From positions 1 to 40,374 of the forward strand of contig REEB01000093.1 in assembly GCA_007695295.1 (NCBI GenBank): a stretch of 40,374 bases of DNA, given 5' to 3'. Within the stretch, counting starts at the first letter, position 1; every line of letters starts with the position of its first letter. The notes under the pieces are model-generated. The model was not told the DNA's origin, made no database searches, and saw only the letters and a list, made by a program, of their open reading frames with translations. The position numbers were made by a program, and so were the translations under genes. This DNA is from Puniceicoccaceae bacterium. GTDB taxonomy: Bacteria; Verrucomicrobiota; Verrucomicrobiia; Opitutales; Opitutaceae. This document shows, piece by piece, positions 2,869 through 26,551 of this stretch.

Positions 2869-3804
2869 ATGAAGCCGTTGACGACCATACCCGCCGCCGG
2901 GCCGGAGACGACCGCGACCACCGGAGCGCGGGGTCCCTTTGTCTTCATCATCAACCCGGTATCCGGGAAGCGGGGCCGCCACCCCGGACGACTGCGCCGG
3001 CTGGAGGCCTTTCTCAAGCGGCGGCACCTGGAAGCGGAGTGGCGGGTCACCGAAGGCCCCGGGCACGCCACCCAATTGGCCCGCGAGGCGGTTGCTGCCG
3101 GGGCGGGCACGGTGGTCTCGATTGGCGGAGACGGGACGATGAACGAAGTCGCGGCCGGGCTGGTCGGCGGTCCGGCCTGCTACGGCATGATACCGACCGG
3201 CTCGGGCAACGGACTCGGCCGCCACCTCGGCCTGCCGATGGCCTTCGACCGGGCGCTGGAAACGCTTTTGGTCTGCCGGGAGCGGACCATCGACACCGGG
3301 GAGGTCAACGGGCGGCCCTTTTTCAACGTCATGGGCATGGGGTTTGATGCCGAGATCGGCCGCCGTTTCAATGCCAGCGCGCGCCGCGGCTTTCTGCCCT
3401 ACGTGACGACCACGCTGCGGTGTTATTTCACGTATCAGCCGGCGTGTTACAGGGTGGAATCGCCGGCGGGCGGCTTCGAGGGCGAGGCCTTCCTCCTTGC
3501 GGTGGCCAACTCCTCCCAGTACGGCAACAACGCCCACATCGCCCCCCGCGCCCGCCTCGACGACGGTGCGCTCGATTTGGTCGCGGTGACCTCGGGCCGC
3601 CTGCGGGATGCGCCCGTCCTGGGGGTGCGGCTCTTCGGGCGGACGATCGACCGGAGCCCGAAAGTGACCACCCTGGCCGGGCCGACCTTTGCGGTGAAAG
3701 TTTCCCGCCCGGTGGAGATGCACACCGACGGCGAGTATCACGGTTTGTCGGATACATTTGCCATCCGGGTGCGCCCGGCTTCCCTGCGGGTCCTGGCTCC
3801 CTGA
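2869..3804 (+). CDS. Diacylglycerol kinase family lipid kinase (YegS/DagK type)
   Basis: A 311-residue soluble lipid kinase of the DAGK_cat family, which phosphorylates diacylglycerol or a related lipid with ATP. Visible motifs are INPVSGK near residue 28, the nucleotide-binding SIGGDGTMNEV at 84-94 and TGSGNGLGRHL at 110-120. The C-terminal beta domain has FNVMGMGFDAEI and ends with the HTDGEY motif seen in family members. The ATG at 2869 lies 7 bases after the glycosyltransferase stop. A longer in-frame extension inside that gene was rejected because it has no family similarity. It is probably co-transcribed with the GT4 gene. The true lipid substrate is not known from sequence. Confidence 0.88.
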   Translation: MKPLTTIPAAGPETTATTGARGPFVFIINPVSGKRGRHPGRLRRLEAFLKRRHLEAEWRVTEGPGHATQLAREAVAAGAGTVVSIGGDGTMNEVAAGLVGGPACYGMIPTGSGNGLGRHLGLPMAFDRALETLLVCRERTIDTGEVNGRPFFNVMGMGFDAEIGRRFNASARRGFLPYVTTTLRCYFTYQPACYRVESPAGGFEGEAFLLAVANSSQYGNNAHIAPRARLDDGALDLVAVTSGRLRDAPVLGVRLFGRTIDRSPKVTTLAGPTFAVKVSRPVEMHTDGEYHGLSDTFAIRVRPASLRVLAP

Positions 3805-3821
3805 CCCGGGAGCAGGCGGCG

Positions 3822-6215
3822 TCAGCCGTGGCGGGCGATGGTCTCGCGGAGCTTTTCGAAAGAGACCGGCTTGCTGAGGATTTCATCCACGCCGGCGACC
3901 CGTTCGCCGCTCTGGCGCATGATCTCGCCGAAACCGGTGAGCATGATGACCGGAATCTCCGGGTGGCGCTCCTTGGAAAAGCGGGCGAACTGATCGCCGG
4001 TCATGCCGGGCATGGCGCGGTCGAGCAGGATGAGATCGAAGGGCTCCTGGTCGAGCCGGTCGAGTGCCTCGGTGGGGCGGCTGAAGCATTCCGGGTTGTG
4101 CCCCATGCTGATGAGCAACTGGGAAACGACCTCGAGCAGGAGCTGCTCGTCGTCAACCACGAGGATGCGCTTGGGACGTCCGGTTTCGATTTCCGGGCGC
4201 AGCACGGTTTGTTTCAGGCGCTTGCCCGCGGGCGGCAGCGTGAGGGTGATGCGGGTCCCTTGGCCGGGCTTCGAATCGAGGTCGAAGCTGCCGCCATGGC
4301 GCTGAATGATGCTGGCGACGATGGAGAGACCGAGGCCCGTCCCGAGCTTGCCTTTGGTGGTGAAAAACGGCTCCAGGCAGCGCTTGCGCACTTCCTCGCT
4401 CATGCCTTCACCGTCATCGATGATGCGCACGAGGACGCGGCCATCGTGCAGGATCGTCTCAATCCCGATGGTGCCTCCGCGGGGCATGGCGTCGACGGCA
4501 TTGAGGATGAGGTTGGTCAGGACCTGGCGGAGGTCGGACTCGACGCCCGCGACCGGCGGGACCGGCTGAAGGGATTCGCTGATCTGGATCTGGATGCCTC
4601 GGCTCTCGGCCTGGTTTTTCCAATGGTGGCGGGTCAGCCCGATGGCCTCGGCGACGAGGGAGGTGAAGTCGACTTCGGAAAGATCCTCGGGGTCGTTGCT
4701 GGAGCGGTAAAACTCCCGCAGGCGGGAAACGACATTGGCGCCATCCTGGGCCGCGCCGCGGATTTTTTCGAGGTAACTGACCAACTTGGTCTGATCCTGC
4801 CCCTTTTCCGGCATGGTCAGGAGCAGCTCGGTGAACCCGAGGATGGGGGCGAGCAGATTGTTAAAATCGTGGGCGATGCCGCTGGCCATCTGGCCGAGGG
4901 CGTGGAGCCGCTCTTGCTGGATGGCGACGCGCTGGGTTTTGCGCAGCTCTTCGAGGGTTTCGCTGAGGTTGCGGGAGCTTTCCCGCAGGGTGTCGGAGGC
5001 GACTTTGGTTTCGGTGACATCCCGGATGAGCAGCATCCAGACGAGGGCGCCGGTGCCGGGCTGGGGGACGGCCTTGAGGTGGAGATTGGCGTAGAAGCTG
5101 GAGCTGTCGGCCCGGAAGATGCGGCATTCGCGGGAGTGGAAGCGGTGGCCGCCGGCAAGGCGGTCGGCTCCGTGAAGCAGGCGTTGGTGGAGTCCCGAAG
5201 TGAGGATTTGCTCGACGGCCTCGGGGGATTCGAGGGTCTCGCGGTTGTAGCCGGTGAGCTTTTCGAAGGTCTGGTTGGTGAAAATGGGCAGAAGGCCGTC
5301 ACCGGTGTGCTGGAAGAGGGCGACGCCGTCGCCGACTGCGTGGATGGCGAGGTGGAGGAGACGGGTGAGGCCGTCGGCGGGCCGGGATGAATCCGAAGGG
5401 GCTGCGGTGAGAAAAATGAGGCCGGACTCCTGGCTGAAGTCGAGGAGGCAATCCAAGGAAGTTTCGTCGCCTTGGGTGGATTGAAAACCGAGGCTGATGC
5501 CGGCGGAGCAGGGATTGCGAAGCACGCTTTCGAGCAGTGCCGCGAAGCGATCGCGGTCGGCGGGAATAAGGAAGTCCATCAGTTTCCGTGACCGGCAATC
5601 CCGGGGAGAGCCGAGGAGCTGGAGCCAGTCCGGACTGAGGTAGTGGATCTGCCCGGTGCCGGTGATGGAGGCGAAGAGCGAGGCGGCCTCGGGCGCCGCG
5701 TTTAAGGCGCTGGTGCTCCAGTCTTCGGCCGAGGGCTGGAGCCGGATGAGGATGACGGAGTCGGGTTGGTTCCGCGCTTTGGGACCATGCCTGCGGATGC
5801 AGCGTGCATCGAGTAGGTACGGGAGCCTGTTGGCGCCCTGTCCGAGGAGGTGGACGAGGGTGTTGTTGGCCGGTTCCCCGCCGGCGGCCAACTCACCGAG
5901 AAAGACGCGGAGCAGGCCCCGCTCGCCGCTCGCCGCCAGTGCGGGCAGGGAGCGCCCGCGCAGGAGATCGATGGGCCAGCCGAGGAGCCGGGCGACGTTG
6001 GGGGTGCCGTCAAGAATGCGGCCCCCGGGGGTGGTGAGGAGGTAGAACGGACCGGTGCCTTGGCCGATCAGTTCGAGAAAAGAAGTTTGGGCGAGGCCGG
6101 CGAATCCGGGGAGGCTGTCCTCGGCGCCTTCGAGCAGCCGGCGGGCGGCCAGTGAAGCGCAGTGTTTTGGCGACGGCTTCGAGGACGGAGGGGGGTGACC
6201 GTTGGATCCTTCCAT
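3822..6215 (-). CDS. Hybrid sensor histidine kinase with PAS domains and C-terminal receiver
   Basis: A 797-residue predicted soluble sensor with no clear membrane helix. Three PAS-like regions occupy about 45-165, 175-275 and 285-405. A coiled-coil linker (405-435) follows, then HisKA with the phospho-acceptor H449 in GIAHDFNN. The ATPase domain has an N-box near N568/N572, DDGEG at 600-604 and GTGLGL at 625-630. A C-terminal receiver starts near 683, with acid pair D688/D689, phospho-site D732, T760 and K782. The HisKA type (ALGQMASGIAHDFNNLL) is that of NtrB-like and hybrid kinases with PAS input. It lies 71 bases after the LuxR-type regulator on the same strand, so the pair is probably one operon. 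The PAS ligand or cofactor cannot be deduced. Confidence 0.92.
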   Translation of the reverse strand: MEGSNGHPPPSSKPSPKHCASLAARRLLEGAEDSLPGFAGLAQTSFLELIGQGTGPFYLLTTPGGRILDGTPNVARLLGWPIDLLRGRSLPALAASGERGLLRVFLGELAAGGEPANNTLVHLLGQGANRLPYLLDARCIRRHGPKARNQPDSVILIRLQPSAEDWSTSALNAAPEAASLFASITGTGQIHYLSPDWLQLLGSPRDCRSRKLMDFLIPADRDRFAALLESVLRNPCSAGISLGFQSTQGDETSLDCLLDFSQESGLIFLTAAPSDSSRPADGLTRLLHLAIHAVGDGVALFQHTGDGLLPIFTNQTFEKLTGYNRETLESPEAVEQILTSGLHQRLLHGADRLAGGHRFHSRECRIFRADSSSFYANLHLKAVPQPGTGALVWMLLIRDVTETKVASDTLRESSRNLSETLEELRKTQRVAIQQERLHALGQMASGIAHDFNNLLAPILGFTELLLTMPEKGQDQTKLVSYLEKIRGAAQDGANVVSRLREFYRSSNDPEDLSEVDFTSLVAEAIGLTRHHWKNQAESRGIQIQISESLQPVPPVAGVESDLRQVLTNLILNAVDAMPRGGTIGIETILHDGRVLVRIIDDGEGMSEEVRKRCLEPFFTTKGKLGTGLGLSIVASIIQRHGGSFDLDSKPGQGTRITLTLPPAGKRLKQTVLRPEIETGRPKRILVVDDEQLLLEVVSQLLISMGHNPECFSRPTEALDRLDQEPFDLILLDRAMPGMTGDQFARFSKERHPEIPVIMLTGFGEIMRQSGERVAGVDEILSKPVSFEKLRETIARHG

Positions 6216-22030: not shown

Positions 22031-22069
22031 GCTCAACAACCTGCCAGACCACCAAATGTTGTGGTGAGC
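22031..22069. promoter_or_regulatory. Nested inverted repeats before nrdB, possible operator
   Basis: An outer pair GCTCAACAAC (22031-22040) and GTTGTGGTGAGC (22058-22069) is complementary apart from two bases. Inside it, ACCAC at 22048 and GTGGT at 22061-22065 bound an 18-base imperfect palindrome matching at 14 of 18 positions. NrdR normally represses nrd operons through 16-base palindromic boxes near the promoter. The resemblance here is in location more than in sequence, so the factor is uncertain. The gap 21868-22175 holds no gene. Confidence 0.4.
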
Positions 22070-22175: not shown

Positions 22176-23261
22176 ATGAACAAGACTTACCAGATCGGAG
22201 CCAAAACCTTCCTCCTTGACCAGACCAAAGCCGAAGCCGCCTACCAGGCGAAAAAAGTCATTCTCGGCCGCGAGACCATGACCTTCAATCTCCTGCCCCT
22301 GAAGTACCAGTGGGCCTACGACCTCTACCGGACCATGAAAGCCAATCATTGGGAGCCGGAGGACATCCCCATGGGCAAGGATATCGAGCAGTGGAAGCAC
22401 CCGACCCTGCTGGCGGAGGTGGAGCGCTGGATCATCATGATGGGGATCGGCTATTTCAGTGCCGCGGAGGGCATTGTCGGCGACAATATCATTCACGTGG
22501 TGCGTGAGTTGGTGACCGCTCCGGAGCTCAAGCTGGTGCTCGGCCGGCACGCCCACGAAGAAAACATTCACGCCGACTCGCTCCTCTACATGATCAGTTC
22601 CCTGGGCATCAACCCCCACGAGTGCGAGGCGATGTTCGAGGACATCGAGACGATCCGCAGGAAGAACGAATTCGTGACCAAGATCTCCCGCGACCTCCGC
22701 CGGGGCATTGATCTGACCCAAGTTGAAAACAAGCAGTTGCTGGCGAAAAACATCTTCATGTTCGGCCAGTGCATGGAGGGGACTCAGTTTTACGGCCTCT
22801 TCGGGATGATCCTCTCGCTTTACCGGCAGAACAAGTTTCCCGGCATTGGCCAGATGTTCCGCTACACCCTCCGCGACGAATCCAACCACATCGAGCTGTT
22901 CCGGTGCCTCTTCATGGACCTGGTGGAGGAAAACCCGGAAATCTGGACGAGCGACTACAAAGCCTCGCTGCGGGAGGTGATGGCGGAGGCGGTGGAGTTG
23001 GAGAAGGAGTTCATCAACGACTGCCTGCCCGTGAACTCGATCGGACTGCGGTCGGAGGATTTTCTGCAGTACATCGACTACATTGCCGACCGCCGGCTCG
23101 AAGGGGTCGGCCTCAATCCGCTCGTCGGCGGCGTCAAGAACCCACTGCCCTGGCTGGCCGAGATGATGGACATCAAGAAGGAGCAGAACTTCTTTGAAGG
23201 CCGGGTCACCGAATACCAGAAGAGCTCCGCCTTGTCGGTGGCGGACGACGACGAATTGTAA
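22176..23261 (+). CDS. nrdB: Class Ic ribonucleoside-diphosphate reductase, beta subunit
   Basis: A 361-residue ferritin-like radical-generating subunit that partners NrdA to make deoxyribonucleotides. Family metal ligands can be placed by spacing: E98, E129, H132, E201, E235 and H238. In E. coli the first ligand is Asp and a Tyr sits seven residues after the second Glu. Here the first is Glu and that position is L136, not Tyr. Chlamydia trachomatis R2 has the same Glu and a Phe there, and many surrounding residues agree (IPMGKDIEQW, IADRRLEGVGL, KEQNFFEGRVTEYQ). The protein should therefore use a Mn/Fe or other tyrosine-free cofactor. The radical-path W59 and C-terminal Y347 are present. No Shine-Dalgarno is obvious. 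nrdA follows after 29 bases. Confidence 0.96.
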   Translation: MNKTYQIGAKTFLLDQTKAEAAYQAKKVILGRETMTFNLLPLKYQWAYDLYRTMKANHWEPEDIPMGKDIEQWKHPTLLAEVERWIIMMGIGYFSAAEGIVGDNIIHVVRELVTAPELKLVLGRHAHEENIHADSLLYMISSLGINPHECEAMFEDIETIRRKNEFVTKISRDLRRGIDLTQVENKQLLAKNIFMFGQCMEGTQFYGLFGMILSLYRQNKFPGIGQMFRYTLRDESNHIELFRCLFMDLVEENPEIWTSDYKASLREVMAEAVELEKEFINDCLPVNSIGLRSEDFLQYIDYIADRRLEGVGLNPLVGGVKNPLPWLAEMMDIKKEQNFFEGRVTEYQKSSALSVADDDEL

Positions 23262-23290: not shown

Positions 23291-26200
23291 ATGCGTACAC
23301 CCCAACTCGAAGAAGATCTGGCCCTGAAGCGATTTGTCTCCGTTCCCAAGGAGCAGAAGCCCAGCTACAACTGGCGCGCCATTTTTGGCGAAGCCGAGTC
23401 CGCCCCGTTGCCCGGCATCCGCGTCATCTGCCCGCACGGGGAAGAAAACTTCGACCTCTGCGAAGTCGTCGACACCATCGGCAAAGCCCTCACCAACGTC
23501 CTTCTTTCCCGCGAGGAGAAGAACATCTTCACGGATGAGAACAAGCAATGGGTGGAGCAGATCGCCCGCGCCGTGGCCGACAACCTCCAGGAACTGGCCA
23601 GCCGCGACGAGCAGGTGCGGATCGCCCTCAACGACCTTTACCTCGTCATTGAGAAAACGCTCATCGACCACCGCGCCTACGATGTGGCCAAAAGCGTCCT
23701 TCTCAGCCGGGCCCAGAAGATAACCGCCCACACCTCGGACCGCGCCGCGCTCCCGCTGCGGCTGATCCGCCGCAACGGCCAAGTCGTGCCGTGGATGCAG
23801 GAGAAGGTGGAGATCGCGGTGCGCAAGGCTTTCCTCACCCTGGAGCAGGACTCCTCCCCGGCACAGGAGATCGCCGAGGCCGTGACCCAGCGATTTCTCC
23901 AGGCCCGGCAGGCCTTCGTCCAGATCGAGGAGGTGCAGGACGCCGTCCAGGAAGAGTTGATGCGCGCCGGCCATTTCAAGGTCGCGGCCCACTACATATT
24001 GTACCGCGCACGCCGCTCGGAGCTGCGCACCGAGGCGGAGGAGCTGGCTCAAGCGGCTCCCGAACAGGGTGCCATGGTCGTGGTCAAGCGCCTCGACGGC
24101 GAAACCTATTTCTGGGACGGCCTCGATTTGAAACGCCGGATCGAATTCGCATCCATCGGCCTCGACCTCTGCCTTTCCCCGGAGGAGATCGAAACCGAGC
24201 TGCGCCGCTCGGTTTTCGATGAAATCACGCAGGCCGAGCTGAACCACACCATCATCCTCAATGCCAAGACCCTGCTGGAAAAAGACGCCGATTTCGCCCG
24301 CTTCGCCGGCCGGATCGTGCTCACCTTCATTTATGAAGAAGTTCTGGGCTGGAACATTCTCGCCGACGGCATTTCCGGCCTGAAGGAGTTTCACCAGAAA
24401 TACTTCCGCCAGTACCTCGAGCGTGGCATCGCCATCGGCCGCATTCACGCCGACTTGCTGAGCTACGACCTCGACCGGCTGACCGAAGCCCTTGATCCGC
24501 TGGCCGATCTGGAGTTCGACTTCCTCGGCATCCAGACGTTGTATGACCGCTACCTCATTGTGGACAAATCCGTCCAGCCCCACCGCCGGCTGGAGACGCC
24601 CCAGCTTTTCTGGATGCGGGTTGCAATGGGCCTCTTCCAGAAGGAAAAGGGCGACCGTGAGGCGCGGGTGATCGAGTTGTACGATCTTTACCGCAGCCGC
24701 CGCTTTTGCTCGTCCACCCCGACACTCTTCAACTCCGGCACCCAGCACTCCCAGCTCTCTTCCTGCTACCTCTACTGGGTGGACGACTCCATCGAGGGCA
24801 TCATGCAGCGCGGCATCGCTGACAACGCCTACCTCTCAAAGTGGGCCGGCGGCCTGGGCGGGAGCTGGACCTCGGTCCGCGGCACCGGCAGCTTCATCAA
24901 CGGCACCAACGGAGAGAGCCAGGGCGTGATCCCCTTTCTCAAGCTCCACAACGACCTCCTCGTCGCCGTCAACCAAGGCGGCAAGCGCCGCGGCTCCGGC
25001 TGCGCCTACTTGGAGACCTGGCACAACGACCTCTACGATTTCCTCGAACTGCGCCGCAATACCGGCGACGACCGCCGGCGGTGCCACGACATGAACACCG
25101 CCAATTGGATTCCGGATCTCTTCATGAAACGGATGGAAGCCCGGGAGGACTGGACCTTTTTCCGTTCCAGCGAGACGCCCGACCTCCATCACCTCTACGG
25201 AAAAAAGTTCGAGCAGCGCTACCTCGAATACGAGCGTCTCGCCGAGGAAGGCAAAGTCCACGGCCAGAAGGTTCCCGCCATCGACGTCTGGAAAAAGATG
25301 CTCCAGATGCTTTTCGAGACCGGCCATCCCTGGATCACCTTCAAGGATCCCTGCAACGTGCGCAGCCCCCAGGACCACACCGGGGTCGTGCACAGCTCCA
25401 ACCTCTGCACCGAGATCACCCTCAACACCGGGCCGGACGAAACCGCCGTCTGCAACCTCGGTAGTGTCATTCTCGATACGCACTTGGACAAGGACGGCAA
25501 CCTCGACTTGGAGAAACTGCGGGAAACCGTGCGTACGGCCGTGCGCGCCCTCGACAATGTCATCGACATCAATTACTATCCGACCGAGGCGGCGCGAAAA
25601 TCCAACCTCAGCCACCGGCCGGTCGGGCTCGGCGTGATGGGCCTGCAGAACGCCCTCTACATGAAAGGCGTGAGCTTCGCCTCGCAGGAGGCGGTCGAGT
25701 TCAACGACGAGTTCATGGAAGCGATCGCCTTCTTTGCCTACGAAGCCTCCAGCGACCTTGCGGCCGAGCGCGGCGCCTACCCCTCTTACCGCGGCTCGAA
25801 GTGGGACCGCGGTTTCCTCCCGCAGGACACCCTCGACCTGCTCGAGGAAGAGCGCGGAGTGCCGATTGACGTGCCCCGCGGCGGCCGGATGGACTGGGAG
25901 GCGCTCCGCGGCAAAATCGCCGCCCAAGGCATGCGTAACAGCAATGTCCTCGCGATCGCCCCGACCGCGACCATCTCCAACATCACCGGCACCTCCCCCT
26001 GCATCGAGCCCGCCTACAAGAACATCTTCGTGAAGAGCAATCTTTCCGGCGAGTTCATCGTGCTCAACGCGTTCCTTGTGAGGGATCTCAAAGCCCGCGG
26101 CCTCTGGAACCAGGAGATGTCGGACAACCTGAAGTACTTTGATGGCGAACTGGCCGAGATCGACGGCATCCCCGAGGATCTCAAACGCCGCTACCTGACC

Positions 26201-26551
26201 GCTTTTGGCATCGACTACATCTGGATCATCGAGGCGGCTTCCCGCCGCCAAAAGTGGATCGACCAATCCCAGTCGCTCAACCTTTGGATGGGCCAGCCCG
26301 ACATGAAGACCCTTTCCCACATGTACCGGGCGGCCTGGCACAAGGGATTGAAGACCACGTATTACTTGCGCACCCTCGGCGCCTCCAACATCGAAAAGGC
26401 GACCGTGGCGGTGAAGAAAGAGGTCAAGGCGAGTCTCAAGGGCACCCCGGCCGGCCCCGGCGCGGTCGCTGCCGCGGTCGAGGGGCGCCCACCGGCGGCG
26501 GCGCCCAAGGCCTGTCTGCTCGATGATCCGACTTGCGAGGCCTGCCAGTAG
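23291..26551 (+). CDS. nrdA: Ribonucleoside-diphosphate reductase, alpha subunit
   Basis: A 1086-residue catalytic subunit of class I ribonucleotide reductase, longer than the E. coli enzyme (about 760) because of its N terminus. Three ATP-cone-like regions are visible: about 43-145 (degenerate), 155-245 (canonical, RLIRRNGQVVPWMQEKVEIAV) and 262-355. Chlamydial NrdA also carries repeated cones. Catalytic residues can be placed: C492 and C721 as the redox pair, N704, C706 and E708 (NLCTEI) in the active site, a Tyr-Tyr radical pair in KTTYYLRT, and C-terminal CEAC for re-reduction by thioredoxin-like proteins. A strong Shine-Dalgarno precedes the ATG. It is co-transcribed with nrdB, and a hairpin terminator follows 46 bases after the stop. 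Confidence 0.97.
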   Translation: MRTPQLEEDLALKRFVSVPKEQKPSYNWRAIFGEAESAPLPGIRVICPHGEENFDLCEVVDTIGKALTNVLLSREEKNIFTDENKQWVEQIARAVADNLQELASRDEQVRIALNDLYLVIEKTLIDHRAYDVAKSVLLSRAQKITAHTSDRAALPLRLIRRNGQVVPWMQEKVEIAVRKAFLTLEQDSSPAQEIAEAVTQRFLQARQAFVQIEEVQDAVQEELMRAGHFKVAAHYILYRARRSELRTEAEELAQAAPEQGAMVVVKRLDGETYFWDGLDLKRRIEFASIGLDLCLSPEEIETELRRSVFDEITQAELNHTIILNAKTLLEKDADFARFAGRIVLTFIYEEVLGWNILADGISGLKEFHQKYFRQYLERGIAIGRIHADLLSYDLDRLTEALDPLADLEFDFLGIQTLYDRYLIVDKSVQPHRRLETPQLFWMRVAMGLFQKEKGDREARVIELYDLYRSRRFCSSTPTLFNSGTQHSQLSSCYLYWVDDSIEGIMQRGIADNAYLSKWAGGLGGSWTSVRGTGSFINGTNGESQGVIPFLKLHNDLLVAVNQGGKRRGSGCAYLETWHNDLYDFLELRRNTGDDRRRCHDMNTANWIPDLFMKRMEAREDWTFFRSSETPDLHHLYGKKFEQRYLEYERLAEEGKVHGQKVPAIDVWKKMLQMLFETGHPWITFKDPCNVRSPQDHTGVVHSSNLCTEITLNTGPDETAVCNLGSVILDTHLDKDGNLDLEKLRETVRTAVRALDNVIDINYYPTEAARKSNLSHRPVGLGVMGLQNALYMKGVSFASQEAVEFNDEFMEAIAFFAYEASSDLAAERGAYPSYRGSKWDRGFLPQDTLDLLEEERGVPIDVPRGGRMDWEALRGKIAAQGMRNSNVLAIAPTATISNITGTSPCIEPAYKNIFVKSNLSGEFIVLNAFLVRDLKARGLWNQEMSDNLKYFDGELAEIDGIPEDLKRRYLTAFGIDYIWIIEAASRRQKWIDQSQSLNLWMGQPDMKTLSHMYRAAWHKGLKTTYYLRTLGASNIEKATVAVKKEVKASLKGTPAGPGAVAAAVEGRPPAAAPKACLLDDPTCEACQ

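What the first reader, a model, noticed from the sequence alone, without database searches (positions are those of the whole stretch)
22176..23261. Tyrosine-free class Ic-like NrdB with Leu at the radical position
The metal ligands E98, E129, H132, E201, E235 and H238 can be aligned by spacing with E. coli and Chlamydia R2. The residue seven after E129 is L136, where E. coli has the radical Tyr and Chlamydia has Phe. The Glu first ligand also matches Chlamydia. A Leu at this position is less familiar than Phe and may mark a distinct branch of the Mn/Fe or other metal-radical enzymes.
Basis: partly seen in the sequence, partly recalled or inferred. Interest (0 to 1): 0.65.

Follow-up and report, generated by a model that had tools for sequence, protein, structure and literature searches.

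The report
Leucine-type class Ic ribonucleotide reductase subunit
This gene encodes the small subunit of a DNA-building-block enzyme that lacks the usual radical tyrosine and probably stores its oxidant on a metal pair instead; a leucine at that spot is already recorded for this known enzyme subclass, so it is a sound but fairly ordinary family member.

Summary
The ORF 22176-23261 (+) encodes a 361-residue class I RNR beta subunit, followed by nrdA. E98, E129, H132, E201, E235 and H238 align with the six ligands of Chlamydia trachomatis R2c, and L136 sits at the Phe127/Tyr122 position. It also has the published class Ic second-sphere pair (E128, D234) and the relay residues W59, Y230 and Y347.

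The novelty claim mostly falls. Published sorting rules already allow Phe, Leu or Val at this site in class Ic (PMC6370689; also PMC12918982; passages seen). What is real is the branch. Of 161 distinct sequences examined, 106 are Glu-first/Leu, 33 Glu-first/Phe and 22 Asp-first/Tyr. The Leu rows form one side of a branch at 100/100 support. Gene order differs: nrdB-nrdA in 42 of 48 Leu loci, nrdA-nrdB in 28 of 32 Phe/Tyr loci, the rest having no nrdA in the held flank.

Best reading: a functional class Ic enzyme with a metal-centred oxidant, Mn/Fe by inference only; metal identity was not testable. Side finding: four tandem or fused second R2 copies beside Leu-type nrdB, three lacking metal ligands.

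The parts
22176..23261 (+). nrdB: class I RNR beta subunit, class Ic type with Leu at the radical position (361 aa)
   Evidence: phmmer best hit C. trachomatis R2 1syy, E 6e-82; NF005550 330.8 bits over cut-off 309; PF00268
22467..22469 (+). E98, first metal ligand (Glu as in Ct E89; Asp in E. coli NrdB and NrdF)
   Evidence: alignments
22560..22571 (+). E129-N-I-H132, ligands two and three; E128 just before is the class Ic second-sphere Glu
   Evidence: second-sphere table in PMC6370689
22581..22583 (+). L136, position of the radical Tyr (E. coli Y122) or Phe (Ct F127)
22776..22778 (+). E201, fourth ligand
22863..22889 (+). Y230 (Ct Y222 equivalent), T231 (Ile in the Phe group), D234, E235 and H238 (ligands five and six)
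23214..23216 (+). Y347, C-terminal Tyr that aligns with the Tyr of Ct ...EYQ...; role in the inter-subunit radical path by homology
23291..26551 (+). nrdA: class I RNR alpha subunit, partner of the nrdB, with one clear ATP-cone (residues 159-243) and a weak ATP-cone-like match before it
   Evidence: NF005544 1269.3 bits over cut-off 965; PF02867, PF00317, PF03477; weak PF03477 match in residues 1-156, 19.3 bits under the cut-off 25.8

Best explanation
The gene encodes the radical-generating subunit of a working class Ic-type ribonucleotide reductase. With a redox-inert Leu where class Ia/Ib have the radical Tyr, the one-electron oxidant that starts catalysis is kept on the dinuclear metal site itself, most likely Mn(IV)/Fe(III) as in Chlamydia trachomatis. 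O2 would oxidise the reduced metal pair, Y230 and W59 would pass in the one extra electron, and the oxidising equivalent would leave through a conserved path that ends at Y347 and continues in NrdA, encoded next door. Shown here: the ligand set, the missing Tyr, the conserved relay residues, the predicted fold, the NrdA partner, and the Leu branch. Inferred from the Chlamydia and E. coli enzymes: the metal identity, the oxidation states, the electron path, activity.
For: All six ligands and Leu136 in register with Ct R2c. First ligand and radical site go together without exception: 106 E/L, 33 E/F, 22 D/Y of 161 distinct sequences. E128 and D234, the class Ic second-sphere pair in PMC6370689, are in 106 of 106 Leu and 33 of 33 Phe rows (one of the two scan patterns asked for EE, so E128 is partly by construction there). 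W59 in 106 of 106 and Y230 in 105 of 106 Leu rows; Y347 in 106 of 107, the other row being truncated. PMC4118035 passage: Y222 and W51 mediate the reduction step in R2c. AlphaFold2 model from 60 rows, mean pLDDT 86.4, pTM 0.85; the best seven PDB entries by VIA-align 2 are six of C. trachomatis NrdB (Z 41.8-42.4) and 6y2n (Z 41.2), above Aquifex R2 (37.4) and E. coli Ia entries (36.3 and less). Intact nrdA downstream.
Against: No experiment on any Leu-type protein was found in the searches made (listings, and passages of some papers), so Mn/Fe is extrapolated at 41% identity to the Chlamydia enzyme. The Leu branch has its own residues near the ligands (T203, Q204, T231, N130 where most or all Phe rows have I, F, I, A), so metal choice could differ. 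Six-ligand patterns alone do not fix the metal (PMC4118035, passage). The genome also has a class II RNR, so dependence on this enzyme is not shown. The Y222 counterpart is Phe in 6 of 33 Phe rows, so its conservation is not a strict mark of the class.
Confidence: 0.82

Rival explanations
1. The Leu branch is Tyr-free and metal-based, but uses a different pair (Mn/Mn or Fe/Fe) because its second shell differs from the Chlamydia type.
For: Differences beside the ligands: T231 in 106 of 106 Leu rows against Ile in 33 of 33 Phe rows; T203 and Q204 each in 105 of 106 Leu rows against Ile in 30 and Phe in 31 of 33 Phe rows. One search lists 30 further positions besides 136 that separate the two groups. 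Class Id uses a Mn2 oxidant with the same six first-sphere ligands (PMC6370689 passage; PMC8463856 passages).
Against: Class Id keeps the Tyr and has Cys at the second-sphere position where this protein has E128. E128, D234, W59 and Y230 all follow the Chlamydia enzyme.
Confidence: 0.12
2. Another residue, for example Y93 or Y138, carries a stable radical in place of residue 136.
For: Y93 is Tyr in 106 of 106 Leu rows and Phe in 33 of 33 Phe rows; Y138 is Tyr in 101 of 106.
Against: Position 93 is also Tyr in 5 of 22 Tyr-type rows, E. coli NrdB included, and lies five residues before a ligand, probably on another face of the helix (inference). Position 138 is also Tyr in 32 of 33 Phe-type rows, the group of the Chlamydia enzyme.
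Confidence: 0.04
3. The subunit is no longer catalytic, or is an R2-like oxidase (R2lox).
For: Degenerate R2 copies do exist beside Leu-type nrdB in some relatives.
Against: All ligands and relay residues are intact, nrdA follows directly, R2lox models score far below their cut-offs (best 46.7 bits against 194), and the C-terminal Tyr that R2lox lacks (PMC3824934) is present.
Confidence: 0.02

Closest known systems
Class Ic RNR beta subunit of Chlamydia trachomatis (R2c, PDB 1syy, 4d8f, 4d8g, 4m1i)
   Same: Six first-sphere ligands, second-sphere Glu and Asp, counterparts of W51, Y222 and the C-terminal Tyr, predicted fold (Z about 42), non-Tyr radical site
   Different: Leu instead of Phe at the site, 41% identity, own residues T203, Q204, T231, N130, acidic DDDEL tail, nrdB-nrdA order (PMC3019208 lists nrdA-nrdB for Chlamydia)
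RNRdb group NrdBz, subclass Ic part (NrdBzc) with Phe, Leu or Val at the Tyr site (PMC6370689)
   Same: Fits the printed residue rule
   Different: Nothing by that rule; RNRdb itself was not searched, so membership of NrdBz rests on the NF005550 score and the trees here
Tyr-bearing, class Ia-type members of the same NCBIfam model (betaproteobacterial NrdB: L119, L125, L130, L133, L137)
   Same: E128 kept; L119 scores 669.1 bits on NF005550
   Different: Asp first ligand and Tyr at 136; nrdA-nrdB order
Marine viral Ic-like clade (PMC12918982) and class O RNR (PMC9531940)
   Same: Non-Tyr residue at the radical site
   Different: The viral clade has Ile or Val; class O proteins are a separate minimal family with Phe or Leu (passages); not compared by sequence here

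Membership tests
Class Ic RNR | Phe, Leu or Val at the radical Tyr position | tested here: met
   L136; rule in PMC6370689. Some papers name Phe only
Class Ic RNR | First-sphere ligands E, E, H, E, E, H | tested here: met
Class Ic RNR | Second-sphere Glu before ligand two and Asp before ligand five (Ct E119, D226) | tested here: met
   E128 and D234; table
Class Ic RNR | W51 and Y222 counterparts for cofactor activation | tested here: met
   W59 and Y230; role from PMC4118035 passage
Class Ic RNR | Groups with class Ic sequences and apart from E. coli class Ia | tested here: met
   NF005550 over cut-off; trees. The exact place against the Phe rows is unresolved, and class Ib NrdF served only as outgroup
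Class Ic RNR | Mn(IV)/Fe(III) cofactor as the oxidant | not testable with these tools
   needs protein
Class Id RNR | Tyr at the site paired with Glu (PMC8463856); Cys at the second-sphere position (PMC6370689) | tested here: not met
   L136 and E128
Class Ia/Ib RNR | Tyr paired with Asp first ligand | tested here: not met
   L136 with E98
Class Ie RNR | Carboxylate ligands missing at sites two, four and five (PMC6370689) | tested here: not met
   E129, E201, E235 present
R2lox | Scores over an R2lox family cut-off; no C-terminal radical-path Tyr | tested here: not met
   best R2lox model 46.7 bits against cut-off 194; Y347 present; nrdA adjacent

The most novel reading that the evidence does not exclude
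The Leu branch is a separate origin of Tyr-free RNR with its own second shell (T203, Q204, T231, N130) and a metal cofactor that is not the chlamydial Mn/Fe, and in some lineages it works as a heterodimer with a metal-less second beta subunit, a bacterial parallel to yeast Rnr4.
Probability: 0.1. Interest if true: 0.6.

Novelty: new member of a known kind. Interest (0 to 1): 0.28.

Why it matters
It shows a stable branch of bacterial RNRs, mostly from Verrucomicrobiota by record title, with Leu fixed at the radical site. Only the Phe type turned up with direct biochemistry in the papers found here. A Leu-type enzyme would be a natural test of what residue 136 and its neighbours contribute to Mn/Fe selection and cofactor stability. 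The pairing of first ligand and radical residue (Glu with Phe or Leu, Asp with Tyr), without exception in the 161 sequences, is a simple annotation rule for this family; class Id, with Tyr and Glu, is known to break it and was not sampled here.

Tried and rejected
Single-sequence AlphaFold2 gave a useless model (mean pLDDT 36.0); the second job with alignment A3 was used instead. An NrdR-box search with a pattern recalled from memory gave 2 matches with up to 3 mismatches in the whole window, 0.76 expected, and 18 of 100 shuffles did as well; one of the two, with 3 mismatches, lies at 22051-22064, upstream of nrdB, and is not taken as evidence. The trees do not settle whether Leu and Phe rows lost Tyr once or twice: the quick tree puts Leu beside all Phe plus betaproteobacterial Tyr rows and warns of long branches, the careful one puts it beside one Phe subgroup at 80/95. 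Alignment A2, which includes E. coli rows, was made but not used for a structure. R2lox, class Id, class Ie and a degenerate subunit were considered and rejected on residues (membership test).

Rows and biases: of the 42 matches, 30 came with loci and 4 more were read through; 8 were not read. Of the 67 matches, 30 came with loci, 22 more were read through through; 12 were not read. The count has 168 rows merged to 161 by identical core; the degenerate copies of L102, L104 (second half) and L106 are not in it, the second copy of G164 is. The trees hold 70 and 54 of the 168 rows, chosen by me for spread; one search leaves out the long-branch rows, among them NrdF and the G164 second copy. One of the two scan patterns fixes E128, E129 and H132, the other lies near the C-terminus; neither covers residue 136 or the first ligand.

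Full report
Observation. The frame 22176-23261 (+) encodes 361 residues and is followed after 29 bases by nrdA, 23291-26551 (+). It is a class I RNR beta subunit: Pfam PF00268 at E 7.1e-69, NCBIfam NF005550 at 330.8 bits over its cut-off of 309, and best solved relatives 1syy and 4d8f, both C. trachomatis R2, at E about 6e-82.

Is Leu136 real and conserved? Yes. One search covered 57 genomes, the own one included; 40 had a match, and of the 30 loci returned (own and 29 relatives) 30 have Leu. In a draw of 193 genomes of the phylum, 65 matched the family model and 46 passed its cut-off; of the 30 loci returned, 22 have Leu and 8 Phe. Of 20 further places read, 19 of them and one, 8 have Leu with Glu first and 12 have Tyr with Asp first. 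In the named genome collection, 80 loci gave 48 Leu, 25 Phe and 7 Tyr. The scan patterns do not cover residue 136.

Pairing rule. After merging identical cores, 161 sequences remain of 168 rows: 106 have Glu as first ligand with Leu136, 33 Glu with Phe, 22 Asp with Tyr, and there is no other combination. The Asp/Tyr rows include E. coli NrdB and NrdF, other R2 types from genomes of the window's phylum, and betaproteobacterial sequences, of which L119 scores 669.1 bits on NF005550, more than the Leu rows tested. So within one family model the switch of the radical residue goes with the switch of the first ligand. Independent switches are few (3 and 2 changes on the trees), so the number of sequences overstates the evidence. 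Class Id, which pairs Tyr with Glu (PMC8463856), is not among the rows.

Class Ic criteria. PMC6370689 (passages seen) classifies NrdBz as subclass Ic by Phe, Leu or Val at the site, and lists Ct E119 and D226 as second-sphere residues. This protein has E128 and D234 there. PMC8463856 (passages and section 9 seen) describes the pairings Tyr/Asp for Ia/Ib, Phe/Glu for Ic and Tyr/Glu for Id; Leu/Glu is nearest to the Ic kind. PMC12918982 (passages) gives Phe or Leu for Ic references, PMC9531940 (passages) compares Phe or Leu of class O with class Ic, and PMC3824934 (passages) cites Hogbom 2010, which I did not read, for Leu, Ile and Val. PMC3019208 and PMC11883743 (passages) name Phe only. So the Leu is a recorded variant, though not every paper mentions it.

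Mechanistic residues. Ct W51 and Y222 are proposed or shown to take part in the one-electron reduction during activation (PMC4118035 passage). Their counterparts W59 and Y230 are in 106 of 106 and 105 of 106 Leu rows; the exception is the second copy of G164. The Tyr Y347 is in 106 of 107 Leu rows, the other row being a truncated locus. The partner NrdA has motifs that I recognise from memory as class I catalytic and radical-path motifs (NLCTEI at 704, YYLR at 1024, C-terminal CEACQ; positions).

Structure. The AlphaFold2 model from 60 rows has mean pLDDT 86.4 and pTM 0.85, with residues 335-361 under 50. Among the 1000 chains that Foldseek ranks highest, its best matches by VIA-align 2 are C. 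trachomatis NrdB, Z 42.4, 2.5 angstroms over 324 residues, then 6y2n Z 41.2, Aquifex R2 37.4, a Bacillus halodurans R2 36.5, E. coli Ia 36.3, class Id Leeuwenhoekiella 33.8; Foldseek's own order also begins with C. trachomatis entries. This shows the fold, not the metal.

The branch. With columns 98 and 136 left out, a careful tree of 54 of the 168 rows puts its 23 Leu rows on one side of a branch with 100/100 support, and 100% of 200 bootstrap trees do so; a quick tree of 70 rows also does (31 Leu rows, SH-aLRT 95). By record title 42 of the 48 Leu loci are Verrucomicrobiota; the other six are titled PVC group bacterium (L074), Planctomycetaceae (L062), Fimbriimonadaceae (L075), Patulibacter (L096), Roseithermus (L100) and Chlamydiae (L107). 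Roseithermus is a complete genome and L075 a 2.76 Mb contig, so those two are unlikely to be binning errors; the others may be. A locus of the window's own family (L005) and the named Verrucomicrobia locus L061 have the same core, so the window is probably from Verrucomicrobiota (inference). Gene order separates the groups: on the same strand, nrdA lies downstream of nrdB in 42 of 48 Leu loci and is absent from the held flank in 6; it lies upstream in 28 of 32 Phe/Tyr loci and is absent from the flank in 4. It is not always directly adjacent. One search lists 31 positions, 136 included, that separate Leu from Phe rows (over 93% and 90% conserved within each); 203, 204 and 231 are among those near ligands. 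Whether Leu and Phe share one loss of Tyr is not settled.

Genome context. The assembly (4.6 Mb, 98.55% complete) has no other match to P0001 at E 0.001, one NrdA and one class II NrdJ and no NrdD match (where 6 of 14 control genomes rang). So class I is not the only RNR here. Upstream, on the other strand, lie an aldehyde-dehydrogenase-family gene, read by me as proA, and an ABC transporter set.

Side finding. Beside Leu-type nrdB in four of the genomes read lies a second R2-like copy: Persicirhabdus sediminis L102, a Verrucomicrobiaceae MAG L104 where both halves form one open frame, a Verrucomicrobiia MAG L106, and G164 of the window's own family. Three have lost metal ligands (QEREVR, PVRKEY, GEGKEH in place of EEHEEH); the fourth keeps all six but has Asn at 230. 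All four keep an acidic tail ending in DDDL. This looks like an accessory beta subunit; function was not tested, and assembly errors in the MAGs are not excluded. One literature search gave 25 papers, 10 listed, among them Rnr4 and Liberibacter nrdB papers; only passages of PMC3824934 were read for this, so I claim nothing about whether this is in print.

Verdict. A real, conserved and probably functional class Ic-type beta subunit; the Leu is a recorded variant, the branch is well defined, the metal is unknown.

Noticed in passing
L102:3897-4865, L104:1882-2916, L106:3868-4926, L144 (G164) second frame after 3218-4327: A second R2-like copy next to (or fused to) Leu-type nrdB; three have lost metal ligands, all four keep an acidic C-terminal DDDL tail. 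Possible accessory beta subunit like yeast Rnr4.
   Followed up: partly
L061-L140: nrdA lies downstream of nrdB in 42 of 48 Leu loci (6 without nrdA in the held flank) and upstream in 28 of 32 Phe/Tyr loci (4 without).
   Followed up: yes
23291-23760: Residues 1-156 of NrdA give a weak ATP-cone match (19.3 bits, cut-off 25.8) before the clear ATP-cone at 159-243. In 38 of 42 Leu loci the nrdA match starts within the first 10 query residues, in 0 of 28 Phe/Tyr loci; the query is itself Leu-type, so divergent N-termini may be missed.
   Followed up: partly
L075, L096, L100, L062, L107: Leu-type nrdB in records titled Armatimonadota, Actinomycetota, Rhodothermota, Planctomycetota and Chlamydiota: possible transfer (most credible for the complete Roseithermus genome L100 and the 2.76 Mb contig L075) or misbinned contigs.
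   Followed up: no
L109, L110, L112, L117, L136, L139: Six Phe-type rows have Phe in place of the Ct Y222 counterpart, so that relay Tyr is not universal in class Ic-like proteins.
   Followed up: no
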